From IMG/VR virus record IMGVR_UViG_3300024518_002777, positions 1-28,837 of that record: a DNA stretch of 28,837 nucleotides; one strand, given 5' to 3'. Under the pieces are notes generated by a model. The model had not been told where the DNA came from and did not search any database. It saw nothing but the letters and a program-made list of their open reading frames with translations. Below, one piece after another: positions 10,146-26,972 of the stretch. This stretch comes from a virus. Made by a program: the position numbers and the translations under genes. Within the stretch, counting starts at the first letter, position 1. Every line of letters begins with the position of its first letter.

Positions 10146-12242
10146 ATGCCTGAAATCCCACAAAGGAATTTTACGGGCGGCGAGCTAGATCCGGCACTGC
10201 ACGCGCGCTCCGACCTCACCAAATATCGCAACGGTCTTGCGACACTGCGTAACTTCAAGATCCACCCGCAAGGCGGTGTGTCGAATCGTGAGGGCACGGA
10301 GTTTATCTACCCAACCAAGGATTCAAATGCCGTATCGCGGCTAATTCCGTTCGAGTTCAACAAGGATCAGGCGTACGTTCTCGAGTTCGGCAATCTCTAC
10401 ATGCGCGTTTTCAAGGATGGTGGCGCCGTGCTCGATGGTGCCGGGCCGGCGGTTTACGAGCTGGTGACCCCCTATGTGACGGCGGATCTGCCACTACTGA
10501 AGTTCACGCAGTCGGCAGACACCATGACGATCTGCCACCCTGACTATTCCGAGAAGGACCTGACGCGCACCGATCACGATGCGTGGACGTTGAGTGAAAT
10601 ATCCTACGCACCAACGATATCGACGGTTGTTGCCCTGTCTGCTACCGAGGGCGGCAATGGTGGTGGCGATTTTGATAAAACCTACGCTTACGTTGTCACT
10701 GGCGTTAATCCAGATGGCGAAGAATCCTTGCGCAGCAATGTCGTTACGGAAACGACGAAATCTCTGGATGGCACCCATTACGTTGATATCACCTGGGGCG
10801 CTCTGTTCGAAACGCCCGATTATTACAACGTCTACAAGGCCGAGTCTGAAACCTCTGATATCTTTGGCTGGATTGGTGAATCAAACACACTCACCTTTCG
10901 AGACTACAACCTGTTACCTGATATCTCGGACACGGCTGATGCCGATGCTCGCGATCCATTCCCAAGCCTGACTGGAGATGACTTCCCAGGTGTTGTCACG
11001 TACTACCAGCAGCGGCAGATATTCGGTCGCACCAACAACAACCGGCAAACGATCTTCGCCACGCAATCTGGCAACTACAAGTCGATGCGCCGCTCGAGGC
11101 CGACAAAGGCTGATGATTCCATAGAGCGCACCATTGCGGCTCAAACGGTGAACGAGATCCGGCACTTTGTGGAGCTGGACGCACTGCTGATCTTGACCTC
11201 TGGTGGTGAGTGGCGCGTCACAGAAGGTCAGGATGGCGTTATGACACCGGCCTCAGTCGGCTTTCGCCAGCAAACAGATTACGGATCATCCGATGTGCCA
11301 CCGGTAAAGATCGGCAACTCTGCGCTGTTCGTGCAGACAGGCGGTAAGACGGTCAGGGATCTGGCATATACCTTCCAGTCAGACGCCTATGCCGGCAATG
11401 ACCTGTCACTACTTGCCAAGCACCTATTCAAAAACAGGACGGTGAAGGAATGGGCATACGCTCAAGAGCCGGACGGTATCGTTTGGACGGTTATGGACGA
11501 TGGCGAAATGCTGGGCCTGACCTACCAAAAAGAACATCAGGTATTCGGCTGGCACCATCACGACACACAAGGCACGTTCGAGTCGGTCGCGGTGATACCG
11601 GAAAACGATCTCGATGCTGTGTATGTGATCGTGAAACGCACCATCAACGGAGCGACCAAGCGCTATGTCGAGCGCATGAAGCCGCGCGACTGGCTGGTTG
11701 CCGAGGACGCTTTTATCGTTGATTGCGGGCTCACCTATGACAGTACGCCGGCGACGACAATCTCTGGCCTGGATCATCTTGAGGGCATGGTGGTAGTAGC
11801 ACTGGCTGACGGCAATGTGGTTACAGCCGACGACTCGGGAACTCCCCTAACCGTTTCAAGTGGCGCTATCACATTGCCGACCTCAGCGAGCAAGGTGCAT
11901 ATCGGGCTATCGTACACTTCAGATTTTGAAACGCTGGACGTTGATCCGGTGCAGTCAATCATTCAGCGCGATGCGTTCCGCGGCAAGCCCCTGAATGTCG
12001 GTGAGGTCATTGTCAAGGTGAAGGACTCGCGCGGCGGCTACATTGGGCCCGATGAGACAATGTTGAACGATCTGCCATCGCGTGAGGTTAGCGACAGCTA
12101 CGATCCGCTGGCCTTACAGACGACTGAGTACAGGGTATCGCTTGAGGAGGACTGGACATCGAACGGCAAAGTTTTCATACGTCAGACTGATCCACTGCCA
12201 ATGACGATCCTGGCAGTGATACCAGACGTCGATGTCGGCTGA
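10146..12242 (+). CDS. Tail nozzle protein (T7 gp12-like, tail tubular B)
   Basis: The 698-residue product forms the lower tail tube through which DNA exits. The start MPEIPQRNFTGGELDPALHA, then RSDLTKYRNGLATLRNFKIH and GGVSNREGTEF, is the hallmark opening of podoviral nozzle-type proteins. An Ig/fibronectin-like insert lies at about residues 150-250 (KTYAYVVTGVNPDGEE to NVYKAES). Further beta-rich propeller-like repeats include GKTVRDLAYTFQSDAY and VFGWHHHDTQGTFESVAVIP, and the end is a short beta domain. Length is near T7 gp12 (794) but shorter. The stop lies 11 bases inside the next gene. Confidence 0.88.
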   Translation: MPEIPQRNFTGGELDPALHARSDLTKYRNGLATLRNFKIHPQGGVSNREGTEFIYPTKDSNAVSRLIPFEFNKDQAYVLEFGNLYMRVFKDGGAVLDGAGPAVYELVTPYVTADLPLLKFTQSADTMTICHPDYSEKDLTRTDHDAWTLSEISYAPTISTVVALSATEGGNGGGDFDKTYAYVVTGVNPDGEESLRSNVVTETTKSLDGTHYVDITWGALFETPDYYNVYKAESETSDIFGWIGESNTLTFRDYNLLPDISDTADADARDPFPSLTGDDFPGVVTYYQQRQIFGRTNNNRQTIFATQSGNYKSMRRSRPTKADDSIERTIAAQTVNEIRHFVELDALLILTSGGEWRVTEGQDGVMTPASVGFRQQTDYGSSDVPPVKIGNSALFVQTGGKTVRDLAYTFQSDAYAGNDLSLLAKHLFKNRTVKEWAYAQEPDGIVWTVMDDGEMLGLTYQKEHQVFGWHHHDTQGTFESVAVIPENDLDAVYVIVKRTINGATKRYVERMKPRDWLVAEDAFIVDCGLTYDSTPATTISGLDHLEGMVVVALADGNVVTADDSGTPLTVSSGAITLPTSASKVHIGLSYTSDFETLDVDPVQSIIQRDAFRGKPLNVGEVIVKVKDSRGGYIGPDETMLNDLPSREVSDSYDPLALQTTEYRVSLEEDWTSNGKVFIRQTDPLPMTILAVIPDVDVG

Positions 12243-12696
12243 TGTCGTCAATGCAACGTGGGAGCATATCGAGCCGATAGCATCGAACATGCGTGAGGCT
12301 GATGTGATTGAGGTTTGGTTGTCGTCACACCGGACGCCACACCAAGCGATGAAGGAAGCATTTGAAGTGTCGGTAAAGGCTTGGACGATCATGGAGGACG
12401 GCGTGCCCATTGGCATGTTTGGTGTATCCTCGGTGTCAGTGCTTGGCACGACAGGGATACCGTGGCTACTTGGGACAGATGGAATGCTAAAAATTAAACG
12501 TCAGTTTGTCCGCGAGTCCGCGAAATATCTGCGTGCGTCGCACAAACTGTATCCGCGGCTGGCTAACTTTGTTCATGCGAACAATGCGGAAAGTCTGCGC
12601 TGGCTGATGTGGCTTGGATTCGATTTTTCTGGGCCGGTAAAGGCTGGCCCTGACGGTGCCGAGTTCTACAAATTCGAGAGGGTATCCGATGTGTGA
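12232..12696 (+). CDS. GNAT-fold internal virion protein (T7 gp13-like, DUF2833)
   Basis: The product is 154 residues. Strand-helix blocks ADVIEVWLSSHRTPHQAM, AWTIMEDGVPIGMFGV and a late helix with FVHANNAESLRWLMWLGFDF give an acetyltransferase (GNAT) layout typical of the T7 gp13/DUF2833 family. The usual acetyl-CoA loop (RxxGxG/A) is not clear, and T7 gp13 is needed for virion assembly, so a structural rather than enzymatic role is likely. The final FYKFERV strand is also family-like. ATG 12232 overlaps the nozzle gene by 11 bases, and the gene overlaps the next by 8 bases, an order matching T7 genes 12-13-14. Confidence 0.78.
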   Translation: MSADVVNATWEHIEPIASNMREADVIEVWLSSHRTPHQAMKEAFEVSVKAWTIMEDGVPIGMFGVSSVSVLGTTGIPWLLGTDGMLKIKRQFVRESAKYLRASHKLYPRLANFVHANNAESLRWLMWLGFDFSGPVKAGPDGAEFYKFERVSDV

Positions 12697-13249
12697 ACCG
12701 ACTACCTGGATAATGATCGGCGGCATGGTGCTCAGTGCCGTCGGTCAGCAACAGCAAGGGCAGGCATCGAAAAAGGCGGCTGAGGCGAACGCTAAAGTGC
12801 AGCTATTTCTGGCTGAAGATGCCGAGGCTCGCGGTGAGGCTGATGTAGCGAGCCAGAAGCGCGTAACTGAGGCGGCGAAGGGTTCACAGGTGGCGAAATT
12901 CGGTGCCAGTGGTGCCGAGATCAATACCGGCAGCTCGCTGGAAATCATTGCCGACACAGAGGAGTTCGGCAAGCTCGATGAACTGCGTATCAGGAGCAAT
13001 GCCGAGCGTGAGGCGTATGCCTACCGGTCTGCGGCGGCGATTGGTCAATCGGCGGGTATCAACGCAGCGCGCAGCGCGAATTTAACGGCACTGGGCACGG
13101 TTCTAGGCGGTGCCAGCACAGTGTCTGGAAAATGGCAGGTGTTCAGGGCCGACAATCCTGGTAGCACATGGCGCGACTTCTTGGGCAACAATGCCGTCAG
13201 TCGGGACTTCCAAGGGCGCGTAATTCGAAATACACCGCTGACTGGATAG
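12689..13249 (+). CDS. Internal virion protein B (T7 gp14-like)
   Basis: The 186-residue product starts MCEPTTWIMIGGMVLSAVGQ with a hydrophobic segment. A long Ala/Glu/Gln helix follows (KKAAEANAKVQLFLAEDAEA and EINTGSSLEIIADTEEFGKL). This is the layout of gp14-type ejection proteins, which enter the outer membrane at infection (family knowledge). I chose ATG 12689 in the ATGTGTGA overlap with the previous stop, with GAGAGGG at 12676-12682. The middle repeats the sequence feature GAS/GAE, common in these proteins. It is the first of three successive genes that match the gp14-gp15-gp16 ejection set by order. Confidence 0.8.
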   Translation: MCEPTTWIMIGGMVLSAVGQQQQGQASKKAAEANAKVQLFLAEDAEARGEADVASQKRVTEAAKGSQVAKFGASGAEINTGSSLEIIADTEEFGKLDELRIRSNAEREAYAYRSAAAIGQSAGINAARSANLTALGTVLGGASTVSGKWQVFRADNPGSTWRDFLGNNAVSRDFQGRVIRNTPLTG

Positions 13250-13252
13250 ATA

Positions 13253-15076
13253 ATGGGCCTAACAGTACCTACAGTCGTAACAGAGAGCGTTCGCAGCGCG
13301 CCTATTAACGCGCCACTACAGCCGGTCAAAGGGGCTGGTGTTGACGTTAGTGGCCTGACGCAAGGGCTGGATGCTGGTCAAGCGGCGCTGGAAAGTGCTG
13401 AGTTGCAGCTATCTCAAATCCGTATCTCCAGCGCCGAGACTGACATTCTGAATCGCTGGAACGCGCGCCTTAATGAGGACGACGACGCCTACTTCAAGAG
13501 TGGCGGTCAGGATGCTGTTGAACGGCTTGACCCATCCATGCAGGAGCTGGATCAGATTGCCTCAGAGGTTATGGGCGGGCTGAAGAACGGCACTGAGCGT
13601 CGCATTTTGACAGATGCCCTTGCTCTGAGGCGCATGAACAACCGTACCAAGATGTCGTTGCACTCGTTCGATTCGCGGCAGGAGTGGGATGAGAACACCG
13701 CGCTGGGTAATCGTGCCGCTCAAATCGAATCGGCAATCAATGATCCGTCGCCTGAGAATCTAAGGCTTTCTCGCGAACGAGTCATTGACGAAACCAACGC
13801 GATATCAAAGATCAACCACCTACCGCCGGAGGCGGCTGAGGTTAATGCCGCTGTGGCGGTCAGTGCTATGTATAAGGCGGTGATCGACAACCTTATCGCG
13901 CAGCAAAAGCCGTTCGAGGCAATGGAAGCCTTTGCTCGCTACGGGCCGGCCGGTACTGATGAAATTCTCGGCGACGATGAAACTAAATTAACCGCGGATC
14001 TGGCTGAAATGACGATCTCTGTGCAGTCCAGTGCGCTCGCGCTTGAGGCTCGTAACAGTAGTGACAATGCCAAGGAACAGCTAGCTCACGCCAGAAACAA
14101 GTTTGGCCCGACGCCAACCCCGCAAGAGATTGCGATCATTGAGGCGGCGACAGCCAAGGTCACGGCACAGCGGAGCCAGGAAGAAACTGCCGACACTATC
14201 GCCAACAAAGAGAATTACGATTATCTTGGTGAGCAGATTATGGCTGCGTTGCGTGTTCCAGGTGCATCCAGAGGCATCGAACTCATTGAGGGTCTGCGGT
14301 CCACGCACCGAGAGCGATTTGATGATTTATCGACAGCACAGCGAGCAAGTCTTGTTGCACTTGCAGGCGCTGGCACGCCAACACAAACGACGCCAGAAGG
14401 GCTGGCGGTCAGGGCTCAGATACTTGATCTGGCGGCTCTGAACCCAGCCGAACTCAAGCGCATCGTTACCGACGAAGAAGGTAACAGGTCGTTTGCTTAT
14501 GACGCTGGAAACTACCGCTCGATACTAAGTGAGTCAGATTGGAAGGAAGTTGATAAGGCCATCCGTGACGCGAAGGGTGCAGGAATAACCAGCGATACAA
14601 GTTACTTGCAGTCCCAGCAAACGACGCTGAATGAAAGAGCTGGTCAAGCTGGTATTGACCTGACCGTTTCCGCTGATGACTTGTCGGATACTGCGATCAG
14701 GCTGCAAAGAGAAACACAGCAGCGCGTGAGCGATTTTGAGTGGATACAGGGTCGTAAGCCACTTGCGCCAGAGTATGACGAAATTCTCGATAGGGTCTTT
14801 ATGCGGGTTCTTTTGCCTGACAATAGGACGCGCCCCGAGCTGTTTAGTGTATTTGCGCCAATCCAGCAGGCACTATTTGAATCAGGCGCTGCTGACCCAG
14901 TGTTTGCCTTCAAGTTGGAGCTAAAGGACATTCCAGCCAGTCACCGCGAAGAACTCAGACAGGCGTTCTTCAATACAAAGGGCAGGTTCCCTAATGAGAA
15001 CGAGGAACTTGATTTTTACGCTGATATTTTGAGCCGGCGCGGCTCGCGCGAGAAACTGTTAGGTGAGGGCCGTTGA
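13253..15076 (+). CDS. Internal virion protein C (T7 gp15-like)
   Basis: The 607-residue product is almost entirely predicted helix. It has a short Pro/Val-rich start, then VSGLTQGLDAGQAALESAEL, LNRWNARLNEDDDAYFKSGGQDAVERL, and long acidic/Ala helices with turns. The position between gp14-like and the giant gene, together with this helical make-up, fits the gp15-type tube protein that is ejected into the periplasm. Sequence resemblance to T7 gp15 itself is not obvious; the call rests on order and general features. The short spacing (3 bases after the previous stop) suggests coupling. The stop overlaps the next start as TTGA. Confidence 0.7.
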   Translation: MGLTVPTVVTESVRSAPINAPLQPVKGAGVDVSGLTQGLDAGQAALESAELQLSQIRISSAETDILNRWNARLNEDDDAYFKSGGQDAVERLDPSMQELDQIASEVMGGLKNGTERRILTDALALRRMNNRTKMSLHSFDSRQEWDENTALGNRAAQIESAINDPSPENLRLSRERVIDETNAISKINHLPPEAAEVNAAVAVSAMYKAVIDNLIAQQKPFEAMEAFARYGPAGTDEILGDDETKLTADLAEMTISVQSSALALEARNSSDNAKEQLAHARNKFGPTPTPQEIAIIEAATAKVTAQRSQEETADTIANKENYDYLGEQIMAALRVPGASRGIELIEGLRSTHRERFDDLSTAQRASLVALAGAGTPTQTTPEGLAVRAQILDLAALNPAELKRIVTDEEGNRSFAYDAGNYRSILSESDWKEVDKAIRDAKGAGITSDTSYLQSQQTTLNERAGQAGIDLTVSADDLSDTAIRLQRETQQRVSDFEWIQGRKPLAPEYDEILDRVFMRVLLPDNRTRPELFSVFAPIQQALFESGAADPVFAFKLELKDIPASHREELRQAFFNTKGRFPNENEELDFYADILSRRGSREKLLGEGR

Positions 15077-18000
15077 CAGACAAGCCCATCAGCATAGGGC
15101 TTGATCAGGACAGCGAGCCGGAAGAAGTTGTCACAGATAAGTTCACTCCTGCACAGAGCAACCTGGATAGCGTTATAGAGTTTCGTGAGGCACAGACTCG
15201 CCAAGCGGTGAGTGTGGGTGTTGAGAAGAACCCCGACCAAGAGGCCAAGGTAGTAAGCCTGTCGGAACAGACCGGCCTACCACCTGACACCGTTGAGCGA
15301 CAGCTTAGCGATGTTGAGAAGCGCCAGAAAACCTTAGACCTTTTGGCGCAGGATTACGGTCGACGGGCTCCGTCACTCCGAAATAAATTAGCCGACCCGT
15401 CGTTCGTCGGCATGACCCACGACGACATGGAGAACCTTGTTCGCACCGAAGAAGTGATGCGTAACAATGACATGGGCTACCTGGAGAAGATCGGGGCCAA
15501 CTATAAGAAGAACCGCGCACTGGTGGAGTCGTCAGAGATTGGTGTCGCGCGCTGGCAAGCTCAGCTTGGTATTGGTGATGAGGTGAGCGAGCGTCAATTA
15601 CTACGGCTCGAGAACCTTGAGAAAGATACCGGCTTCACGCACGAAACCGGCTTCTTTGCTGGTATCCCTGTTGAGTCGGTCGGTATGTTGCCGATGGTGT
15701 TCGACGTACTGGCCGAGGGTGGTATTGCTGGAACTGGTGGTGCAGCCCTTGGTGGCGCTATCGGTTTTGCAGCGACGCGCACACCAGCGGGCGCTACGGC
15801 TGGCGCTAAGTTCGGTGGTGGGCTGGCGTTCAAAATGGGTGCGTTTCACTCCGTTTTTAACATCGAATCAGGACTTGCCTACAACGATTACGTTCAGACT
15901 GATGGCATTGACCGTGACATGGCGGCAAAGGCGTCAATCGTGGTTGGTGCCATCAATGGTTCGCTTGAGTTCTTCTCGCTGTCGCTCATAGGGCGCACTG
16001 TAACGCCAGCTCTGCGCTCCGTTATCCGCTCCAGAGTAAGGCGCATGATGGCGACTGAAACTGGCAGACAGGTAATTCAGCGCATTGCAGGACGCTATTT
16101 GGCCGCTGCCGGCGGTGAAGGGCTCACCGAGGGGATGCAGGAAGTCTCGACCATGGCCGGCGAAGTGTTTGCCGGCATGTTCAAAGAGGGCGAGGAGGTC
16201 ACCGAAGAAAATCTCAACACTGCCTTTGATGAGATGCAGGGGGCGCTGCCGGAGATAATCAAGTCAGATGAGGTGAAGGGCGCTGCGCTGGTTGGGCTTC
16301 AGGCTGGTCTTGGCCTTTCGTTCCCAGGCTCGGTTGCCAGTAGCGTTAGCCAAACCCGCGGCAAGAAAACAAAAACGAATGTTGAGCAAGGGCGCATCGA
16401 TAAGATCGTTGAGCTGTCAACCGATGCCAAGCTACGGCCACGCTCGGGCAAGGTCTACCGGCAAACGATTGAGGAGATCGCCGAGGAGATCGAGGCAACC
16501 ACTGGTGAGGTCAATGAGATCTACTGGACCGCCAGCGAGGCCCTGAAGTGGCTTGAAGCTGAGGAAATAGACATAAACGAGCCGCCCCCTTCTGCTGGGG
16601 TGGCTTCCATTCTCGAGCAACTGTCAGACGCACTGGCTACCGACGGCGATATTGTGCTGTCGATCGCTGACTTTGCGACTGACATAGCGCCGAGCGAGAA
16701 CTTTGCCGAGACTGTCAGGGCTCACGTAAAGATGAGCGACGATGCGTTCACCCAGGGCGAGCTAAAGGACGTCGATGCAACGGTCGAGAAGCGCATTAAA
16801 AAGCTGATCGACGACGCCAAGATATCGGTCGAAACTCAGCGACAGGTTGAGTTAATTGCAGCACAGGTGACGGAACAGCTTATCGACACGAACAAGCTGG
16901 ACAAGGAATCTGCGAAAACCTCTGCCTCACTGATATCGAACTACGTGCTGACCAAAGCCGCGCGCACTGGTATGTCGGTCGAGGACGTATTCGCCAAAAT
17001 GGGGATTGAGATTGTCGGACCCGAACACGCGCCGCTTGAGGGCGATGCGATTCTGGATCAGGTGATCGAGGCGAACCGGATGGCCGAAGTGCAGCTCGCT
17101 AGGCTGGATGAAGAAGGCGCACGACTGGATCAGGAGTCGGAAATTATTGGCGCCCAGATTGGGCAGTTCGATAATTTTGTCGAAATGCTGTCACGTAATC
17201 TTGGGATTGATTTTCGGGAGGCGACTGACACTGACCTTGAGGGTAATTTCTTTGAGGCGCTGAGTCAGGAAACGCTACCGAAAGGATCGAACTTTGACTT
17301 CGGGCCGGCTGGTGTGGCTGTTTTCCCGTTTCAGGATATTGAGGGTACTCAGGCGACCCCCTCGGGGCTGACGCAACAGGTTCGCGGCTTGCAGGAAGCG
17401 AATCAGGCCAACATTGATCGCCAAGCTGAGATTGAGGCTCGCCGCGAAGAAATAGGCCAGCAGCGGTCACAGATTGACACTGGCGCTCGGTTCTTCAATC
17501 AGGGTCCGGTCGATGAGACTGGCGACCTGTTCGCCAAAATGGAGGAAGAAATTGACTTTGCTCCGATTGAAGAAGGCGAAAGCGCGGTCGAGGTAAAGGC
17601 TGATATCAACCGCCTGTCGAAGATGCTGGGACCGCAGCTCTACGGCAACATGAGTGATATGCCGCGGGTCACGATCAAGGAGCTGGTGCAGAATTCGTTT
17701 GACGCCATCAAGGATTTAATCGGCACTGAGAACGAAGTCGACGATCCGATTATCCAGGTCACAACCGATCCGAGCGAGCGCACCATTACGGTTGAGGATA
17801 ACGGCATTGGTATGACGCCTGACATTATCCGCGATGCCTTCCTGACGATAGCTGGGACACACAAAGAAAGCGACCGACCATCGGGTAGCTTTGGTGTGGC
17901 GAAAATGCTGTTCCTGTTTGGCGCTGACCGAATTCAGCTCACAACCGTTCGCGACGGCTTCCGCACCACAATGGATACCACTGGTGAGGAATTACTGAAT

Positions 18001-21000
18001 AGTTCTTCCGAGGGCGGGACGCAGCCGACGATCAAGACTGAAAGGACCGATCAGCCGTCCGGCACGACTATAGTGGTCACAATTCCGGCGAGCTACAACG
18101 ATACGTCGACCGGCGAGCAACGAAACATCTTCTCGCCGTCTGGATACATGGTCGAAGAAGTCTTGCAGCATAGCCCGCTGCTCGAGGACGTCCAGGTAAT
18201 CAGTAACGGCCAGTCGCTTGATATTGGCTCCGAGTTCCCGATTGAAAACTACGCGCCGCTGGCGACGGTCAGATTTGATTGGGGCGAAATCGATGTACTG
18301 ATAAGCAAGGATGAGCAACCGGGCGCTACTGCCGGCAAGAATATGCACATTCTGTCGAACGGCTTGTGGCAATTCAGCTCGGCGCTCAAAGAAAATCCGT
18401 TTGCGTTCATGGGTCCGAATGTCCCGAGAGTCGTTTACATCAACGTGAAGCCAGCCGGTACGCCGGCCCAACCTGGCTATCCGTTTGTGCTGAATCGTCA
18501 AGCAATGACAACGGACGCTGGTAACGACCTTGCCAAGATTCAGAACTTTATGTCGGCGATCTTCGGTGCAGACCAGACCGAGGAACTGGCGAAAGGCTTT
18601 GGCGTTATCAGGCAGATTGACGCCGAGGGCAATCTGACTGAGGAAAAGAATCTCACGCCGGATACGTCGACCATCGTTCGACCGACTTTCAACTTTGATC
18701 CTGGCGATGTGATTGAGGTCAAAGAGGGCGTACTGACGCGCAATGGCGAGGTGATCGAGCCTATCGATCAGGATGGCTTTGAGGCGGCACGAATCGACGT
18801 TTCAGCGTTCAGGGTCGATGAGGGCGTTGTCGATCCGAACCTGCCGATCATTCATAACGCGGTGGTCCGTGAGGGTGACGGCAAAGCGTTGCTCGATGTG
18901 CTGTTCGAGGAATTCGGCGAGCAACGGGTAGTCGCTTACTTCGCCAAGTTCACGACCATTTTCACCAGTCTGCGTGACACCCTGAACGAGAAGGGCCGGA
19001 CTGACTTTGACGGCGTAGATAAATTCCCGGTGGGTACGTTCTTCGATAAGGCCGGTGGCAACTTCACTGAGAATAATCCCGGCGCGGTATTCGGCATCAA
19101 TATCCGAGTGCCGTTCGACGGTATGTTTATCAATCCGGCGCAGAGTTCGATCGATCCGCAAATCAATCCCGACTCAAAGGAAACAGTGTTTGACAGCCAG
19201 CGGCACAGGGCTGAGATTATCGCCGCGAACATGATTACGACCATGATTCACGAAATGGCTCACTTCTCGGAAATGAACCACGAACTGTCATTCATCAACG
19301 CCTTGCAAAGCGCTATGGCAACGCTCACGATCGAGGCCGATTTGCAGACCGTTACATCGCAGCTCGGTCGGCACATAGGAGAGAATCTTGACATCTTCAA
19401 TTCAGCAAACGAAAAGCTCTACTCAAGGGATTACCGGAATCCTGGGGCAGCTCTCGAAGACAGTGGCACCGCAGCTTCCCAAGATGCGCGCGGCGATACA
19501 GGGGGAGATACGGCTGTCGGCGAGCGAGGGGAACAAACCGGAGTATCTGGACCGGATGCAGAAAGCACTGGCGTTGCTGGATCAGAGCAAGTCGATGAAG
19601 GGTTTTCTGAAGGAGTCGGCAAGTCTAAGGCTGTAAACTCTGCGCCGGGTAGCGTTCATCCAGAAGCCGGTAACGGCTCGCAGCTCAACCAGATATTTAA
19701 CCAGGACACCAGCGACACTGAGTTTAGTGAGGAAATACTTACTGCGCATGGCCGCGTGGTCAAGGCGGCAGAAAAGCTAGATAGTCATTTTTCTGAAGGG
19801 CCGGAAGGTTCGACTGTTTCTTCTGGCGTTGCTGGCCCTCAAAAGGCGGCGGTTACAAGGGCGCAAAATGCGCTATCCAAAGCAATTCGTGAGCAGTTTC
19901 CAGATGCTACGCCGCAAGAAAATGTGAACATAAGGACGGCGCTCGCTGAAGGTGAAACGGTACTCAAGCAGGACACGCGCGGCGAAATCTTATTCGACAA
20001 CGAGGCTGAAACCGCGATCATTCGGCTCACTGAGGCGGCTGATCTTTCGACCTTCCTGCATGAGTCCGGCCACCTGTTTCTCGAAATGGAAAAGCGGTTC
20101 TTCAATGATCCGTCAATTTCTGACAGCGCCAAAGCCGACAGTCAGGCGATCCTCGACTGGCTGGGTGTCGACTCGTTCGAGGACATTGAAACCAAACACC
20201 ATGAGAAGTTTGCTCGGGGCTTCGAGGCTTATCTTTACGAGGGTAAGGCTCCAAGCGCCGAGTTACGGGGTGCGTTCCGTAGGTTCTCGGCATGGTTGCA
20301 GAAAATCTATCAGGGGCTCAGGCAGCTCAATGTGCAGCTCAGTCCTGAAATCATCGGTGTGTTCGATCGGATGCTGGCGACGGATGAACAGATAGCCGAG
20401 GTCAAAGAGCAAATGGCGCTTGAGCCGTTGTTCAAGACGGCTGAAGAAGCTGATATGACGCCCGAGGAATTCGTCGAGTATCAGGAAAAGAGCCAGGGTC
20501 GTGCCGAAGAAGAACTCCGCAAGAAGGTACTGGCGCAGCTCACTCGAACGGCGACGAAGTGGTGGCGTGAGGAACTGGCGAAAGTACAGGATGAGGTTCG
20601 TGAGGAACTGTCGGCGCTTGAGTTGTACCGGGCGATCGCCTTCCTGCGCGCCGCTGACCCGCCGGAAGGCTTTGAAGAAAACAAAATGGACCGGGATACG
20701 GTCTATCAGATGCTCGGGCTGGCCTCACCAACCGAGGTGCGCCGAGATCCAAAGGCCGTACACCCTGACGTTGATTCGCTGAGCGTAGCAATAGCCAAGC
20801 TGGGTGGACTGGATCGCGAGGAGGCCGAGTTACAAGGCGTCGATCCCGCTCACTGGCGCAACATAAAGGTACTCAAGACCGACAAAAAGACCGGGCAGAA
20901 GGTACTTCGCAGCGTACCGAATCCAGAGAACATGCCGGCAGGGGTTACCAAGCGCCTGTTCAAGGCTGAGGGCGGGCGTACCTTTGATGAGATGCGCGAG

Positions 21001-24000
21001 CTGCTGGCCGAGCAGGGCATGGACTACCTGGACGAAGATACAACGGCCAGCGATCTACTTGAAAAGCTGCTGGAGGATCTATCCGGCGACACGCAGTATT
21101 CCAAGCAAGCCAACTTTGACCTGCTGTTCGAGAACCCGAACGAGGTTCCCAAGGAGCGGTTCAAGGCTCCGGCGCAGCTCCGCGGCCTGACCAAAAAAGG
21201 TGGCATAAGTCCTAGCTCGGTGGCTGAGATATTCGGTTTTGCGTCAGGATATGAGCTGGTGACGCAGATTATGGAGTCGCCGACGCTTAACTTTGCTGTT
21301 GAGCGCAAGTCGAATGAGGTCATGGTGCAGCGTCACGGTGACATTCTCAATGACGGTACGCTCGAGCGAGAGGCGATTGAGGCGTCGCACAACACGGAAC
21401 AGGGCTCAGCATTGCTGGCGGAACTTCGTGCGCTGTCGGGGCAGACGAACATACAGGCGATCAGTGAGCGCAAGGCCATCAAGGATGCGGCAGAGCGGAT
21501 CATCGGCGGCAAGCGTATTAGTACCTTGCGGCCAGCCCAGTACCACGCCGCTGAGGTCAAGGCAGCAAAGGCCGCTCAAGAGGCTATGGACACTGGCGAC
21601 CTTGAGGCAGCACAGGCGGCGAAGCAAAAACAGGTGTTCAACTTCTACCTGTGGCGAGCGGCGACCGAGGCCAGGACGAAAGCTGACAAGATGCAGAAGC
21701 GGCTGCGCACCATGCAGACGAAGAACTATCCGGCCTCAGCGGTGCGGGCTGACTATGCCGGCCAATTGAAGCAATTCCTCGCGGCCTATGATTTCAGGCG
21801 CTCCAATTCTCAGGCACGGCACAACGGCCAGCAGCTACTTGATTCGGTTAAGAAGTGGATTCGGGACCAGCAGGAAGATCCCAAGTCGCCAGCGAACATC
21901 ATTGATGCCGACCAGCTCACGACGATTATTCACTATCGGGACATGACGCTCGATCAGCTACAGGCAGTGCATGACGTAGCGAACAGCTTACTCAATGCCG
22001 GCCGCAAGAATAGCAAGGCCGAGAAAGAACAGTTCAACGCCAACATGAAGATCATGGCTGAGCATATTGCTGAGGTCGCCGCAAAGAAAAAAGACCTTGG
22101 TATCGAGGACACCAAGGCACGCCGCAAGACACAGTGGAGCCGAGCCGTATTTGCCTATCATCGCAAGCTGGAAAGTTTCGTGCGCGAACTGGATGCGTTC
22201 GAGGAGCTGGGACCGTTCTGGAAGCTGATTATCAAGCCGCTACTGGACGCCAATAACAAGAAGCTGAAGATGCAGGAAGCTGCACATGACAGCCTGGATG
22301 CGATATTTGAGGGCCATGACGGGCTGTTCAACGAGAACAAGGATAAGCGCAGTTTCACGCTGGAGAGTGGCCGTAAGATTCAGCTTTCTCTGGGTGGTCG
22401 AATCGCGATGCTGCTTAATTGGGGCAATGAGGGGAGCCGGGCGGCTACCCTGAATCAGCATGACTTGGTGCTGACGAACAAGGACGTGGAAACAATACTC
22501 GCCACATTGAGCGATACCGATCTGGATTTAGCGCAAGACATCTGGGACTACATCGATACGTACTGGCCTGAAATAGCCAAGCAAGAGCGCGACCTTACCG
22601 GCGTTGTTCCTGTCAAGGTTGAGGCCAGCGAGTTCACGGTGAATGGTCGCAAGATGAAGGGCGGCTACTATCCGCTGGTCGAAGATATCGCGCGCGGTCG
22701 GTTCGTTGAAAGCGACGCACAGCGCGAAGCCCGACAAGCAAGGGAGAAGATTGGCGGCACGACCCGCGCCATGACGGCACACGGCTGGACAAACGAGCGC
22801 CGCAACTTCGCCGGCAAGAGCATAGACCTGAATATTGACGTGGTGTTCAGCCATGTCGAGGCAGTGATTCACGATTTGAGTCACCGCCAAGCCGTAATGG
22901 ACGTTGACCGCGTGCTGAGCAACAAGGATATCGCTGACGCGATCAAGAACTCTCTGGGTAGAGAAGCACACCAGTCCATGAAGAACACGGTTGCGGAGGT
23001 TGCTGGCGGTCAGGTGAATACCAGGGAGTTGAGTCAGGTACAGGCAACGCTGCGCTGGTCGCGTTTGGCAATTACTTACGGCGCGCTGGGATTCTCACTG
23101 AAAACCGGGTTCTCACAGATGCTCGGCTTTGCTACCGCGGTCGGCGAGTTCGGTGGCCGTGAGGTGGTGGTGCGCGGGGTGATTGACTACATGAGTAACC
23201 CTGTCGAAAACAGGGCATTCATTGAAGCAAACTCTGTTTTTATGCGCGAGCGTGGCAAGACAATGCACCGCGACGTAACCGACATCCTGCAAGGGCTGAA
23301 GGGCTCCACGACAATGAACACTCTCAGGAAGAAAGCGTTTCTGTTCCTGCTCTCTGGTGACCGCGCTATCTCGCTGCCGGTGTGGTGGGGTCAGTATCAG
23401 GTCGGTATGGATCGGGTGGCCGACCCTGCGTTTGAGGGGTTTGTCACGGAGCAAGATGCAATCGATTGGGCTGATCGCTCAGTTTCGCGCACACAGCAGT
23501 CCGGCCTGCTTATGGATCTGGCGAACATTGAGAGCAAAAACGAGTTCATCAAAATGTGGACCGTGATGTATTCGGCCTTCTCGGCGATTTACCAAATTGC
23601 CGTGGAACAAGGGAAAAAGGCACAGCTCGGCAAGATCAACCGTATTGAGTACGTCTACAACATGATGTGGATTCTGGTTATCCCGCCGCTGTTCGAGGAG
23701 CTGATGACAGGTCGCGAGGACGATGACGACGAGGATAGCAATATCGTCAACAACCGCTGGACTAAATCTGTCGCCGGATTTTCGCTCGGCACGATGGCCG
23801 GCTTGAGAGAGATTGGCTGGCTCATGGAAGCCGGCATGAACAGTGAGCTGCCAATGCAGAGGGTTCTGAAAACACCGTTCGACCTGGGTACGCAGATCGC
23901 GCAGTTTGAGATTGACGCCGCCTTTATCCGCGCTGCCTTTGCGGTTCCGCAACTCTTTCACATACCGGGCGGTTCGCAACTAACCCGCACGATGCAGTAT

Positions 24001-24114
24001 TTGTTAGCATTGGAAGAAGGCGACGAGGAAGGCTTCAATGCTTGGGAGTTCCTGGTGACCGGCCCGCGCGAGGAAAGCGACGAGGCCCGACGCAAGCGCG
24101 AGGATTCGCAGTAG
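15073..24114 (+). CDS. Giant polyvalent internal/ejection protein with GHKL ATPase and two metalloprotease motifs
   Basis: The 3013-residue product (about 330 kDa) sits where T7 gene 16 would be, and takes 31% of the window. Start TTG 15073 overlaps the previous stop and has AGGTGAGGG upstream. In order: helical N-terminus; a Gly/Ala-rich hydrophobic, pore-like part (191-275); a LPD-like segment with DIVLSIADFATDIA (about 520-540); a GHKL/HSP90-type ATPase with ELVQNSFDAI (870-879), DNGIGM (909-914) and GSFGVAK (938-944); then a zinc-type HEMAHFSEMNH (1393-1403). A Gly/Asp-rich linker follows (about 1456-1522). Next come a second HESGH (1663-1667) with a following FARGFEAYLYEGKAPS block, a GGLDREEAELQGVDP segment near 1912, long helices, and a hydrophobic patch near 2862. 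The pattern matches phage polyvalent proteins that are injected with DNA. Enzyme activities are predicted, not shown. Confidence 0.85.
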   Translation: MTDKPISIGLDQDSEPEEVVTDKFTPAQSNLDSVIEFREAQTRQAVSVGVEKNPDQEAKVVSLSEQTGLPPDTVERQLSDVEKRQKTLDLLAQDYGRRAPSLRNKLADPSFVGMTHDDMENLVRTEEVMRNNDMGYLEKIGANYKKNRALVESSEIGVARWQAQLGIGDEVSERQLLRLENLEKDTGFTHETGFFAGIPVESVGMLPMVFDVLAEGGIAGTGGAALGGAIGFAATRTPAGATAGAKFGGGLAFKMGAFHSVFNIESGLAYNDYVQTDGIDRDMAAKASIVVGAINGSLEFFSLSLIGRTVTPALRSVIRSRVRRMMATETGRQVIQRIAGRYLAAAGGEGLTEGMQEVSTMAGEVFAGMFKEGEEVTEENLNTAFDEMQGALPEIIKSDEVKGAALVGLQAGLGLSFPGSVASSVSQTRGKKTKTNVEQGRIDKIVELSTDAKLRPRSGKVYRQTIEEIAEEIEATTGEVNEIYWTASEALKWLEAEEIDINEPPPSAGVASILEQLSDALATDGDIVLSIADFATDIAPSENFAETVRAHVKMSDDAFTQGELKDVDATVEKRIKKLIDDAKISVETQRQVELIAAQVTEQLIDTNKLDKESAKTSASLISNYVLTKAARTGMSVEDVFAKMGIEIVGPEHAPLEGDAILDQVIEANRMAEVQLARLDEEGARLDQESEIIGAQIGQFDNFVEMLSRNLGIDFREATDTDLEGNFFEALSQETLPKGSNFDFGPAGVAVFPFQDIEGTQATPSGLTQQVRGLQEANQANIDRQAEIEARREEIGQQRSQIDTGARFFNQGPVDETGDLFAKMEEEIDFAPIEEGESAVEVKADINRLSKMLGPQLYGNMSDMPRVTIKELVQNSFDAIKDLIGTENEVDDPIIQVTTDPSERTITVEDNGIGMTPDIIRDAFLTIAGTHKESDRPSGSFGVAKMLFLFGADRIQLTTVRDGFRTTMDTTGEELLNSSSEGGTQPTIKTERTDQPSGTTIVVTIPASYNDTSTGEQRNIFSPSGYMVEEVLQHSPLLEDVQVISNGQSLDIGSEFPIENYAPLATVRFDWGEIDVLISKDEQPGATAGKNMHILSNGLWQFSSALKENPFAFMGPNVPRVVYINVKPAGTPAQPGYPFVLNRQAMTTDAGNDLAKIQNFMSAIFGADQTEELAKGFGVIRQIDAEGNLTEEKNLTPDTSTIVRPTFNFDPGDVIEVKEGVLTRNGEVIEPIDQDGFEAARIDVSAFRVDEGVVDPNLPIIHNAVVREGDGKALLDVLFEEFGEQRVVAYFAKFTTIFTSLRDTLNEKGRTDFDGVDKFPVGTFFDKAGGNFTENNPGAVFGINIRVPFDGMFINPAQSSIDPQINPDSKETVFDSQRHRAEIIAANMITTMIHEMAHFSEMNHELSFINALQSAMATLTIEADLQTVTSQLGRHIGENLDIFNSANEKLYSRDYRNPGAALEDSGTAASQDARGDTGGDTAVGERGEQTGVSGPDAESTGVAGSEQVDEGFSEGVGKSKAVNSAPGSVHPEAGNGSQLNQIFNQDTSDTEFSEEILTAHGRVVKAAEKLDSHFSEGPEGSTVSSGVAGPQKAAVTRAQNALSKAIREQFPDATPQENVNIRTALAEGETVLKQDTRGEILFDNEAETAIIRLTEAADLSTFLHESGHLFLEMEKRFFNDPSISDSAKADSQAILDWLGVDSFEDIETKHHEKFARGFEAYLYEGKAPSAELRGAFRRFSAWLQKIYQGLRQLNVQLSPEIIGVFDRMLATDEQIAEVKEQMALEPLFKTAEEADMTPEEFVEYQEKSQGRAEEELRKKVLAQLTRTATKWWREELAKVQDEVREELSALELYRAIAFLRAADPPEGFEENKMDRDTVYQMLGLASPTEVRRDPKAVHPDVDSLSVAIAKLGGLDREEAELQGVDPAHWRNIKVLKTDKKTGQKVLRSVPNPENMPAGVTKRLFKAEGGRTFDEMRELLAEQGMDYLDEDTTASDLLEKLLEDLSGDTQYSKQANFDLLFENPNEVPKERFKAPAQLRGLTKKGGISPSSVAEIFGFASGYELVTQIMESPTLNFAVERKSNEVMVQRHGDILNDGTLEREAIEASHNTEQGSALLAELRALSGQTNIQAISERKAIKDAAERIIGGKRISTLRPAQYHAAEVKAAKAAQEAMDTGDLEAAQAAKQKQVFNFYLWRAATEARTKADKMQKRLRTMQTKNYPASAVRADYAGQLKQFLAAYDFRRSNSQARHNGQQLLDSVKKWIRDQQEDPKSPANIIDADQLTTIIHYRDMTLDQLQAVHDVANSLLNAGRKNSKAEKEQFNANMKIMAEHIAEVAAKKKDLGIEDTKARRKTQWSRAVFAYHRKLESFVRELDAFEELGPFWKLIIKPLLDANNKKLKMQEAAHDSLDAIFEGHDGLFNENKDKRSFTLESGRKIQLSLGGRIAMLLNWGNEGSRAATLNQHDLVLTNKDVETILATLSDTDLDLAQDIWDYIDTYWPEIAKQERDLTGVVPVKVEASEFTVNGRKMKGGYYPLVEDIARGRFVESDAQREARQAREKIGGTTRAMTAHGWTNERRNFAGKSIDLNIDVVFSHVEAVIHDLSHRQAVMDVDRVLSNKDIADAIKNSLGREAHQSMKNTVAEVAGGQVNTRELSQVQATLRWSRLAITYGALGFSLKTGFSQMLGFATAVGEFGGREVVVRGVIDYMSNPVENRAFIEANSVFMRERGKTMHRDVTDILQGLKGSTTMNTLRKKAFLFLLSGDRAISLPVWWGQYQVGMDRVADPAFEGFVTEQDAIDWADRSVSRTQQSGLLMDLANIESKNEFIKMWTVMYSAFSAIYQIAVEQGKKAQLGKINRIEYVYNMMWILVIPPLFEELMTGREDDDDEDSNIVNNRWTKSVAGFSLGTMAGLREIGWLMEAGMNSELPMQRVLKTPFDLGTQIAQFEIDAAFIRAAFAVPQLFHIPGGSQLTRTMQYLLALEEGDEEGFNAWEFLVTGPREESDEARRKREDSQ
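19388..19636 (+). other. Overlapping +1-frame coding-like segment inside the giant gene
   Basis: An 82-codon frame (TTG 19388 to TAA 19636) reads +1 to the long gene. It has AGGAGAG at 19377-19383 as a possible ribosome site. Its codons (CTG, CAG, AAG, GAG, GCG) look like those of neighbouring genes, and its peptide contains LSKTVAPQLPKMRAAIQGEI and PEYLDRMQKALALLDQSK, a normal helical protein. The long frame here gives a Gly/Asp/Ser-rich linker using rarer codons (GGG, GGA, ACA). It may be an overprinted gene, the true C-terminus of an originally separate upstream gene, or a frameshift in the assembly. Confidence 0.4.
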
Positions 24115-24143: not shown

Positions 24144-26972
24144 ATGACCATCAATACAACGTCGACATCGAGCGGACCCTATACCGGAACTGGTGCGGTT
24201 GATACCTATGCGTATGACTTCAAGATCCAACTTTCATCGGAAATTGTGGTTGTTGAAACTGATGCAGCAAGTGTGTCGACGACCCTGGTTGAGGGAACAA
24301 ATTATTCAGTGACCGGTGTTGGCGTCAACGGTGGTGGCAATGTTGTGCGAACGGCCGGCAACCTTCCGACCGGCTACACATGGTTTATTTCAAGGGCTAC
24401 GGCGCAGACGCAAGAGGCTGATTTTGCCGGGCAGGGTCCGTTCACGCCGCTTTCGCATGAAAATGCGTTTGACAAGCTGACGCAGATACTTCAGGAAATC
24501 GACGACAAAACGATCGACATTCCTGCGTCGGTGCGCGCGGGCAATATCTACTCGTTTGACGATGCTGGTGACAGTGAGGCAAACATTGATGCTGACGCTG
24601 TTCGGGCTGTAGTGGCTGGCGCCTTGGCGACCGGCGTTGCAATGACTGTAGATAGCTTTACTGGTGATGGCAGTACAGCCGGCTTCACGATGTCTATATC
24701 ACCGCCGAGCGCCAATTCAGTACTGGCAACCATCGACGGTGTGATGCAGTTACCGGGCACTGACTTCACGATATCCGGTGCGGTTGTGACGTTTAATGCA
24801 GCGCCGCCGAATAGCTCTAGCGTTGTGCTGAGGAACATCGGTAATACTGCGCCGGCATTGACGGTCGACTCCACGAATGTATCGCACCTGGTATCGAAAA
24901 CAGGTGCAGTAACGAGAAACGTTCAATCTGCCCTGATGGAGCGAACCAGCATTTCTGATTTTGGGGCTGTTGGTGATGGAATTGCTGATGATACTGTGCC
25001 CATTCAAAACGCCCTCGATGCTCTTGAGGCCAGTGGTGGCATCGTCTTTGGTGATCCGTCTGCGAACTACTTTTTTACCACCAATATAATCGTTCCCACT
25101 GGCGTCACGCTCGATGGTCAGGGCTGTACGTTCACGGCTGATTCAACCGGGTTTACCCTGGTCAAGGTGGCGTCCAATCCTGCCGGCGTGATGACCAACA
25201 AAAACAGGTTTAGCTTTGGCTCTGCGCCTGATGTTGTTCACTTCCGTAACTTCACGCTGGACTGCGGAATTCAGGAGTTGTCGGCTGGAATCATGCTGTC
25301 GAACACGACCGGATCAAGTATTGATAACGTCCGAGTCATTACGACAGCGGGCACGTCAATGTCGGCCCTGATCGATCTTGATGGGCAAAATACTCATGTA
25401 AGGATAACGCGCAACCGCCTCGAGCAAATACAGGGCGCCGGTGTAAATGGTGCATGTATTGCAATACGGAACCCCGATCAGGTAATCATCTCAGAAGATA
25501 TCGTCATCAGAGATAACTACCTGAAGAAAATCGGCCCATCGAATACTGATGAGCTTATGTGGATCAATGGTGCGGGTGGTGATACGCGCAACGTGCGTGT
25601 ACTGAGCAATACCTTTGAGACTGGCGCAACGGATACATCCTCGTCGGCCCTGACCATCTACCGCTTCACTAACAGCGGCGCCATTCCGAACGCTCTTTGC
25701 TCTGACATCATTGTGTCTGACAATTATTTCAACTGTGAGCACTCAACCTTCACGGTAATCCTGCTTGGCTTTACTGGTGATACCACTGGCACGCCTTTGC
25801 ACAATGTTCGCATTCGCGGCAACACGATCAAATTCAAACTCGGCGCCGGCATTGCTGCGGCCAGCAATATCTCGGATATTCTGATTAACGAGAACTCCTT
25901 TGAAAACACCAACACCGACACCACGACACTGACCGCGATCAGCTTGTCAACGTGGCCGAATGAGCCGGCGACTGTCAGTGGTAACAGGGCTTTCGGTAAG
26001 ATTTCCAGATTTGCGATTGGCCTTGCAGATGTTGTCGATAATTATGTCGACGACTGCCTGATCTTTGCCAAGGGCTGTAATTCTGTGAAGGGCAATAATG
26101 CGAACTGCCGCCAGATGGCTACCATGATCGAGGTTGATTGTGACGTAACAGACAACCTTTTCAAGATGACCGAGTACTCAGGCGATGCCAGTGAGGGTGG
26201 ACTGCACTACACGTTCTATGTCACTGGCGCTGATATTGGCTCAAAGATTCAAGATAACAAGGCGGTCATATACGATCCGCGCATTGGCATTCATCGCTCG
26301 TCAGCGGCGCTCACGCCGAAGCTGCAATTCAGCCGCAATGAGATTAGCGACAAGGTGTTCACAATCACTGGTGCGGCCAATAACGGTGGTGGTCTGATTC
26401 GCATTACCTCGGTGGCGCATCAAATGACCACGGGCAAGCAATGTGTGATTAGCGGGGTGGGTGGTACGACCGAGGCAAACGGCACCTGGACAGTGACATT
26501 TGTTGACGCTGACAACTTCGATTTGGACAGCTCGACGTTTACAAACACCTACACTTCAGGTGGTGAGTTCTACGGAATCAATACCGGGTTCCAGGTGTTC
26601 TCAACAGCCTTTCGTGACCTGTACGACAATTTCTTCAACGGCGTCGCTCAACGCAGAACCTCTTATGTAAGCGGACAGCCTAGCGGCCTGGTGATGCACG
26701 AAGAAGAAGCGCTCACCACTTTGGACAACACCGGAACGCCGACCGTGCGCGGTGGTCATGTATTCAAGACCGGTGGAGCCACAGCGATTACAGACTTTGA
26801 CAATGGCGTGGTCGGTCAGACCATCAAAGTCATAGCGGCTCATACGGTTACAGTAACTGACGGTGCGCCAATAATTCTGGCTGGCAGTTTTGCAATGACC
26901 CCATCTGATACACTGACCCTGACGATGTTTGACGATCAGGTGTGGCAGGAAGTCTCTCGTAGCGTGAACTAA
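24144..26972 (+). CDS. Tailspike 1: virion-anchored beta-helix (pectate lyase-like)
   Basis: The product is 942 residues. Residues 1 to about 140 match the T7 gp17-type virion-binding N-terminus (YTGTGAVDTYAYDFKI, then LPTGYTWFISRA and QGPFTPLSHENAFDKLTQIL). A small beta domain with FTGDGSTAGFTMSISPPSAN follows (about 166-235). A pectate-lyase-3-like parallel beta-helix begins at SDFGAVGDGIADDT (D272) and runs to about residue 750. The C-terminus has TPTVRGGHVFKTGG to VWQEVSRSVN, a module shared by many phage spikes. The likely role is binding and perhaps cleaving a surface polysaccharide. The exact substrate and catalytic residues cannot be read here. The gap before it holds palindrome copy C and a GAGGATG ribosome site. 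Confidence 0.88.
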   Translation: MTINTTSTSSGPYTGTGAVDTYAYDFKIQLSSEIVVVETDAASVSTTLVEGTNYSVTGVGVNGGGNVVRTAGNLPTGYTWFISRATAQTQEADFAGQGPFTPLSHENAFDKLTQILQEIDDKTIDIPASVRAGNIYSFDDAGDSEANIDADAVRAVVAGALATGVAMTVDSFTGDGSTAGFTMSISPPSANSVLATIDGVMQLPGTDFTISGAVVTFNAAPPNSSSVVLRNIGNTAPALTVDSTNVSHLVSKTGAVTRNVQSALMERTSISDFGAVGDGIADDTVPIQNALDALEASGGIVFGDPSANYFFTTNIIVPTGVTLDGQGCTFTADSTGFTLVKVASNPAGVMTNKNRFSFGSAPDVVHFRNFTLDCGIQELSAGIMLSNTTGSSIDNVRVITTAGTSMSALIDLDGQNTHVRITRNRLEQIQGAGVNGACIAIRNPDQVIISEDIVIRDNYLKKIGPSNTDELMWINGAGGDTRNVRVLSNTFETGATDTSSSALTIYRFTNSGAIPNALCSDIIVSDNYFNCEHSTFTVILLGFTGDTTGTPLHNVRIRGNTIKFKLGAGIAAASNISDILINENSFENTNTDTTTLTAISLSTWPNEPATVSGNRAFGKISRFAIGLADVVDNYVDDCLIFAKGCNSVKGNNANCRQMATMIEVDCDVTDNLFKMTEYSGDASEGGLHYTFYVTGADIGSKIQDNKAVIYDPRIGIHRSSAALTPKLQFSRNEISDKVFTITGAANNGGGLIRITSVAHQMTTGKQCVISGVGGTTEANGTWTVTFVDADNFDLDSSTFTNTYTSGGEFYGINTGFQVFSTAFRDLYDNFFNGVAQRRTSYVSGQPSGLVMHEEEALTTLDNTGTPTVRGGHVFKTGGATAITDFDNGVVGQTIKVIAAHTVTVTDGAPIILAGSFAMTPSDTLTLTMFDDQVWQEVSRSVN

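What the first reader, a model, noticed from the sequence alone, without database searches (positions are those of the whole stretch)
17640..18560. GHKL/HSP90-type ATPase embedded in an ejection protein
ELVQNSFDAI, DNGIGM and GSFGVAK are the N, G1 and G2 boxes of GHKL ATPases in correct order and spacing, and a possible transducer-like region follows (about residues 1050-1165). Such a domain in a protein placed like T7 gp16 suggests an injected ATP-driven chaperone, clamp or MORC/MutL-like DNA-acting module with anti-defence or host-takeover function. I do not know of a studied example in this setting.
Basis: partly seen in the sequence, partly recalled or inferred. Interest (0 to 1): 0.65.

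Follow-up and report, generated by a model that had tools for sequence, protein, structure and literature searches.

The report
HSP90-like ATPase–protease cargo in phage protein
A short-tailed phage carries, inside the giant protein it probably injects into bacteria, a swappable two-part machine made of an HSP90-like ATPase joined to a zinc protease; the same pair turns up in more than 160 uncultured phage contigs and in none of about 50,700 deposited phage records searched, which points to an undescribed injected weapon or helper.

Summary
Confirmed and extended. ORF 15073-24114 (3013 aa) contains a real GHKL ATPase (aa ~843-1005; HATPase_c_3 E=3.8e-9), with all catalytic boxes intact. An AlphaFold2 model (pLDDT 86.8) matches HSP90 structures first (TRAP1, E=1e-14). 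The other half is a zinc-protease domain (HExxHxxxxxH, aa 1393-1403), closest to Wss1/WLM/YgjP zincins. In 52 non-redundant relatives from uncultured phages, the N-box Glu/Asn, DNGxGM, GxxGxAK, transducer Arg and all zinc ligands are practically invariant. The two halves are linked in 78 of 79 loci found by the protease alone; the exception is a truncated contig. Most of these giant proteins share nothing else with the window protein. The window protein is a Bbp10-type (BPP-1) polyvalent protein in the T7-gp16 position. Its conserved N (LPD22) and C scaffolds flank a cargo slot that holds PBECR nucleases in BPP-1 and Carin1, is empty in Vibrio phage MZH0603, and holds the ATPase-protease here. 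Best reading: an injected, ATP-gated protease effector of HSP90 type, not MORC/MutL. Virion presence, injection, both activities and the target are untested.

The parts
15073..24114 (+). Giant polyvalent protein of Bbp10 type, 3013 aa, host of the module
   Evidence: Open frame; phrog_9880 over aa 1633-2994 E=4.9e-286; tblastn to BPP-1 Bbp10, Carin1 gp32 and others
15184..17028 (+). N-terminal scaffold (aa ~38-652) with LPD22 at aa 43-132
   Evidence: LPD22 E=1.4e-14; LPD22 in 13 of 13 Bbp10-family members; shared with L008, Carin1 and others
17599..18087 (+). GHKL (HSP90-type) ATP-binding domain, aa ~843-1005
   Evidence: HATPase_c_3 3.8e-9; invariant E870, N874, D877, D909, G913, M914, G928, T929, K931, G938, G941, K944, G997 in 52 of 52
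17680..17706 (+). N box ELVQNSFDA (E870 predicted catalytic, N874 predicted Mg-binding)
   Evidence: Sequence; E870 and N874 52 of 52
17797..17814 (+). G1 box DNGIGM
   Evidence: D909, G913, M914 52 of 52
17884..17904 (+). G2 box GSFGVAK
   Evidence: G938, G941, A943, K944 52 of 52
18100..18612 (+). Transducer-like domain (aa ~1010-1180) with invariant G1097, Q1100-F1101, Y1136-P1137 and R1142 (YPFxLNR)
   Evidence: Secondary structure of the AF2 model; conservation; not detected as an HSP90 middle domain by sequence
18868..19452 (+). Zincin metallopeptidase domain, Wss1/WLM/YgjP-like, aa ~1266-1460
   Evidence: AF2 model pLDDT 89.5; Pfam YgjP-like in 39 and WLM in 31 of 52 members, weak; only Wss1 leads the PDB fold matches, not significant
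19249..19281 (+). Zinc site HEMAHFSEMNH (HExxHxxxxxH), aa 1393-1403
   Evidence: H1393, E1394, H1397, H1403 52 of 52
19495..19872 (+). Gly/Glu/Ser-rich linker between module and C-terminal scaffold (aa ~1475-1600)
   Evidence: Sequence composition; end of the modelled region has low pLDDT
19879..24054 (+). C-terminal scaffold (aa ~1603-2994), beginning with a second zincin motif HESGH (aa 1663-1667, 20059-20073)
   Evidence: phrog_9880; HExxH invariant in all 13 Bbp10-family members aligned
12232..13249 (+). Two internal virion protein genes upstream (12232-12696, 12656-13249)
   Evidence: phrog_308 2.8e-38 and phrog_418 1e-33, 'internal virion protein'
13253..15076 (+). Endolysin/transglycosylase-like structural protein, Bbp11 position
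   Evidence: phrog_1044 1.8e-8; same order as BPP-1 bbp11-bbp10

Best explanation
The finding is a swappable effector module carried in the cargo slot of a virion-cassette polyvalent (Bbp10-type) protein. An HSP90-type GHKL ATPase with its transducer is joined by a short linker to a Wss1/WLM-like zinc protease. Most likely working: the giant protein is packaged and ejected with the DNA (inferred from position and relatives). Inside the host, ATP binding closes the GHKL dimer on a client protein (inferred from family knowledge) and presents it to the attached zincin, which cuts it (inferred). The likely targets are host defence or host regulatory proteins met in the first minutes of infection (speculative). 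Shown here: the predicted fold, intact catalytic residues, obligate coupling of the two enzymes, spread between otherwise unrelated giant phage proteins, and exchange with nuclease domains at one slot.
For: GHKL identity. AF2 model and HSP90 first among solved structures. Catalytic residues of both enzymes invariant in 52 non-redundant relatives at 38% mean column identity. Linkage 78 of 79 when searched by protease alone, GHKL always upstream, 40-175 aa apart. In most relatives only the module matches the window protein. Same slot holds PBECR1 in BPP-1 and PBECR5 in Carin1, and is empty in MZH0603; ART and GNAT domains occur elsewhere in the Bbp10 set. Other carriers of the module also carry ART-PolyVal, LPD38, LPD39, NUDIX and DarB-like antirestriction matches. 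Ejection-protein position; neighbours of other carriers include 'DNA ejection protein' and virion structural matches.
Against: No experiment shows the protein in virions or in cells. No relative of the full module was found in the 50,697 phage records searched by tblastn, so no host or mutant is known. The zincin-to-Wss1 link is weak in structure search (best E 1.9). The transducer is not recognised by sequence. Whether protease and ATPase act on the same substrate is inference; the target is unknown.
Confidence: 0.5

Rival explanations
1. Self-service module: the HSP90-like part helps the giant protein refold after passing the tail channel, and the zincin cuts the polyprotein to release its domains. 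No host protein is attacked.
For: Iyer et al. 2017 propose autoproteolytic processing for zincins of polyvalent proteins (PMC5512222). Ejection proteins are described as conformational gymnasts (PMC8954989, title and abstract only). Module flanked by a low-complexity linker.
Against: The scaffold has its own zincin motif, invariant in 13 of 13 members, and exists without the module in many isolated phages, one with an empty slot. HSP90 acting on its own polypeptide would be unusual (general knowledge).
Confidence: 0.25
2. DNA-acting clamp-protease: the GHKL dimer encircles or slides on the entering DNA and the Wss1-like protease strips bound host proteins such as restriction enzymes or silencers, like a DNA-protein crosslink protease.
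For: Wss1/WLM affinity of the zincin; topoisomerase VI-B as a weaker sequence match of the ATPase; DarB-like antirestriction matches in some carriers.
Against: HSP90 outranks MutL and topoisomerase VI-B in sequence, and the top 50 structure matches are all HSP90. No DNA-binding domain was recognised in the module. Wss1 match not significant on its own.
Confidence: 0.15
3. rIIA-like counter-defence: the GHKL part blocks a membrane or abortive-infection defence as T4 rIIA does, and the zincin is accessory.
For: rIIA proteins are the best GHKL matches in isolated phages (tblastn E=3e-6; BFVD fold matches about 1e-11); rIIA GHKL is described as counter-defence (PMC7824862).
Against: Only the ATPase domain matches; the module lies in a giant protein of the virion cassette and always has the zincin.
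Confidence: 0.07

Closest known systems
Polyvalent proteins of phages and conjugative elements (Iyer et al. 2017, PMC5512222), specifically the Bbp10-type protein of BPP-1
   Same: LPD22 N-terminus, conserved C-terminal scaffold with HExxH, position after the structural transglycosylase, exchangeable effector domains (PBECR1 in BPP-1, PBECR5 in Carin1)
   Different: No GHKL or HSP90 domain is mentioned in the text of that paper (supplements not seen), and its zincins are said not to belong to previously defined clades, whereas this one leans to WLM/YgjP
HSP90 family (HtpG, TRAP1)
   Same: ATP-binding domain with N, G1, G2 boxes; model and sequence match HSP90 first
   Different: Scores far below the HSP90 family cut-offs; the ATPase half is followed by a protease, not by the HSP90 C-terminal domain
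T4 rIIA family
   Same: Phage GHKL ATPase linked to counter-defence (PMC7824862)
   Different: rIIA is a separate protein and matches only over the ATPase domain; here the ATPase is cargo of a virion-cassette giant and is joined to a zincin
Wss1/SPRTN (WLM/SprT) proteases
   Same: HExxHxxxxxH zinc site; WLM and YgjP-like profiles match many members; Wss1 entries lead the fold matches
   Different: Window protein below the YgjP-like cut-off, fold matches not significant; fused to an HSP90-type ATPase
Phage T7 gp16 and other ejection proteins
   Same: Last and largest of the internal virion protein genes, just before the tail fibre
   Different: No sequence relation tested or seen; carries multiple enzyme domains

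Membership tests
GHKL ATPase superfamily | N, G1 and G2 boxes in order with catalytic Glu and Mg-binding Asn | tested here: met
   52 of 52
GHKL ATPase superfamily | Bergerat fold | tested here: met
   AF2 model pLDDT 86.8; Foldseek to HSP90 E=1.1e-14; predicted, not solved
HSP90 (HtpG) family | Reaches the curated family score and has the full N-middle-C architecture | tested here: not met
   36.9 bits against a cut-off of 455 and 30.5 against 371; the ATPase half is followed by a zincin
MORC/MutL | Nearest GHKL relatives are MutL or MORC | tested here: not met
   MutL E=1.9e-3 against HSP90 1.7e-6 in the same search; top 50 fold matches all HSP90
rIIA | Similarity along the whole rIIA protein | tested here: not met
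   tblastn matches limited to the ATPase domain, 26% of the query or less in the rows shown
Polyvalent proteins, Bbp10 type | Several unrelated enzymatic domains plus LPD domain in one large protein of the virion cassette | tested here: met
   LPD22, GHKL, two zincin motifs, phrog_9880; gene order
Polyvalent proteins, Bbp10 type | Packaged and injected with the DNA | not testable with these tools
   No virion proteomics found in the papers searched
WLM/Wss1/YgjP zincins | HExxHxxxxxH zinc site | tested here: met
   52 of 52
WLM/Wss1/YgjP zincins | Significant profile or fold match to the family | tested here: inconclusive
   Best member E=8.6e-6 (WLM) and 2.4e-5 (YgjP-like); window 17.8 bits against a YgjP-like cut-off of 26; Wss1 first in fold search but E=1.9
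Ejection (internal virion) proteins | Gene position within the internal virion cassette | tested here: met

The most novel reading that the evidence does not exclude
Phages inject a self-contained, ATP-driven HSP90-type chaperone-protease that captures and destroys chosen host proteins before any phage gene is expressed, carried as an exchangeable cartridge in giant ejection proteins across many uncultured phages.
Probability: 0.35. Interest if true: 0.82.

Novelty: new variant of a known kind. Interest (0 to 1): 0.62.

Why it matters
The polyvalent-protein catalogue text names no GHKL or HSP90 domain, and I found no paper describing an HSP90-type ATPase fused to a zinc protease in phages. If active, it would be an energy-dependent protease delivered with the phage genome, a way to remove host proteins at time zero. 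The empty-slot and nuclease-bearing relatives give natural controls, so the question is testable. The conserved scaffolds and exchangeable slot also give a rule for finding more injected effectors.

Tried and rejected
Single-protein scan of viral contigs with the ATPase alone found nothing because the chosen peptide patterns were poor; alignment-based scans then gave 98, 138 and 164 relatives. Scan of genome contigs gave one hit, in a Deltaproteobacteria MAG contig of 6.4 kb, so no cellular family was found. Profile comparison of the transducer with HSP90 middle domains failed (E=0.33); my impression that YPFxLNR corresponds to the HSP90 catalytic-loop Arg is a guess. MORC/MutL and histidine kinase readings rejected on ranking. 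Chance or frame artefact rejected: the module is conserved end to end in dozens of contigs. Paper searches for virion proteomics of Bbp10 relatives gave nothing usable. Sphingobium/Ensifer plasmid matches proved to be HtpG-like proteins.
Full report
What was checked. The window is a 28,837-base IMG/VR virus record. The reported motifs lie in one open frame, 15073-24114, 3013 aa. Pfam HATPase_c_3 matches aa 866-973 at E=3.8e-9, above its curated cut-off, and LPD22 matches aa 43-132. NCBIfam's HSP90 models match at 1e-9 to 1e-7 but far below their family cut-offs, and HSP90 structures match by sequence at 4e-8.

Surroundings. PHROG matches give the order terminase, portal/adaptor, protease, major capsid, tail tubular protein, tail nozzle, two internal virion proteins, endolysin/transglycosylase-like protein, giant protein, tail fibre, tail spike. 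This is the order of Bordetella phage BPP-1 bbp17 to bbp9 and of Cobetia phage Carin1. The giant protein is a Bbp10 homologue: phrog_9880 covers aa 1633-2994 at 4.9e-286, and the C-terminal part finds 48 phage records by tblastn. Placement like T7 gp16 is thus supported; packaging and injection were not testable.

The unit is a two-enzyme module. Three first relatives aligned from aa 843 through about 1500, past the ATPase into a second domain with the motif HEMAHF. Scans with alignments gave 98, 138 and 164 related stretches in viral contigs and one in a MAG contig. In 52 non-redundant modules (mean column identity 38%) the following are invariant: E870, Q873, N874, D877, D909, G913, M914, G928, T929, K931, G938, G941, A943, K944, G997, Q1100, F1101, Y1136, P1137, R1142 and the zinc site H1393, E1394, H1397, H1403. 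Among 79 ORFs found with the protease half alone, 78 carry the ATPase upstream at 40-175 aa distance; the one exception starts at a contig end. The first scan used only ATPase-half patterns and all 52 have the zinc site, so the linkage holds from both sides.

Structure. An AlphaFold2 model of aa 830-1476 from 52 sequences has pLDDT 86.8 and pTM 0.78. The top 50 solved-structure matches are all HSP90, led by TRAP1 at 1.1e-14. Among viral models the best match is one unnamed protein with the entire module (A0A516L4L2_1, E=3.8e-60, 36% identity), followed by chaperone-like and rIIA proteins. The protease half was modelled alone (pLDDT 89.5); Wss1 entries rank first to fourth but with E of 1.9 and above. 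Pfam YgjP-like and WLM match 39 and 31 of 52 members weakly. I call it Wss1/WLM/YgjP-like, with family membership inconclusive.

Cargo behaviour. Outside the module most of the 52 proteins show no match to the window protein. Within the Bbp10 family the N and C scaffolds are conserved and the segment between them varies: about 950 aa with the ATPase-protease here and a longer one in L008, about 880 aa with PBECR5 in Carin1, about 170 aa with PBECR1 in BPP-1, about 440 in Vibrio phage 1.185.O, about 510 in CP2, and 25 aa or less in Vibrio phage MZH0603. LPD22 is present in 13 of 13, while ART, GNAT, LPD23, PBECR1, PBECR5 and the GHKL domain are each in one or two (positions of ART, GNAT and LPD23 were not mapped). 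In L009 the N scaffold appears to be a separate gene (phrog_9880 match in the upstream ORF) and the module is N-terminal in the next. Other carriers hold ART-PolyVal, LPD38/39, NUDIX and DarB-like antirestriction matches. Neighbour genes of other carriers include virion structural and DNA ejection protein matches. This pattern is that of an exchangeable effector rather than of a part needed for ejection.

Mechanism. Shown: predicted fold, intact catalytic residues, obligate coupling, cargo distribution. Inferred: ATP-dependent closure of a GHKL dimer on a client and cutting by the attached zincin, inside the host after ejection. Speculative: identity of the client. Rivals are self-processing and refolding of the polyvalent protein, a DNA-bound clamp-protease, and an rIIA-like defence blocker. 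The self-processing rival is weakened, not excluded, by the scaffold's own conserved HExxH and by relatives that lack the module.

Literature. The polyvalent-protein paper (PMC5512222) names no GHKL, HSP90, WLM or SprT domain in its text and treats zincins as processing enzymes or effectors. The jumbo phage survey (PMC7824862) describes rIIA GHKL proteins as poorly understood counter-defence. Searches for GHKL with polyvalent or metallopeptidase found no description of this fusion. The library holds only open-licence papers, and supplements were not readable.

Verdict. A real, conserved variant of a known kind that I found described nowhere: a polyvalent ejection-type protein with an HSP90-type ATPase-zincin cartridge.

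Noticed in passing
window 20059-20073 (aa 1663-1667): A second zincin motif, HESGH, opens the conserved C-terminal scaffold and is invariant in all 13 Bbp10-family proteins aligned. It may be the family's own processing protease; deposited annotations call the protein a crystallin-motif or lysis protein.
   Followed up: partly
L091 5105-10813 (Vibrio phage MZH0603): Bbp10-type protein with an empty cargo slot (25 aa or less between the scaffolds), a natural control.
   Followed up: yes
L003 2-16645: The relative with 48% identity sits in an open frame reported as 7075 aa, an extraordinarily large phage protein.
   Followed up: no
L009 5503-8184 and 9848-18280: The Bbp10 scaffold appears split into two genes, with the ATPase-protease module at the N-terminus of the second.
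   Followed up: partly
window 24144-26972 and 26986-28713: Two tandem tail fibre/spike genes with pectate-lyase-like beta-helix matches, probable polysaccharide depolymerases.
   Followed up: no
L086: The only hit in bacterial genome contigs is a 6.4 kb contig of a Deltaproteobacteria MAG, perhaps a phage fragment binned with a host.
   Followed up: no
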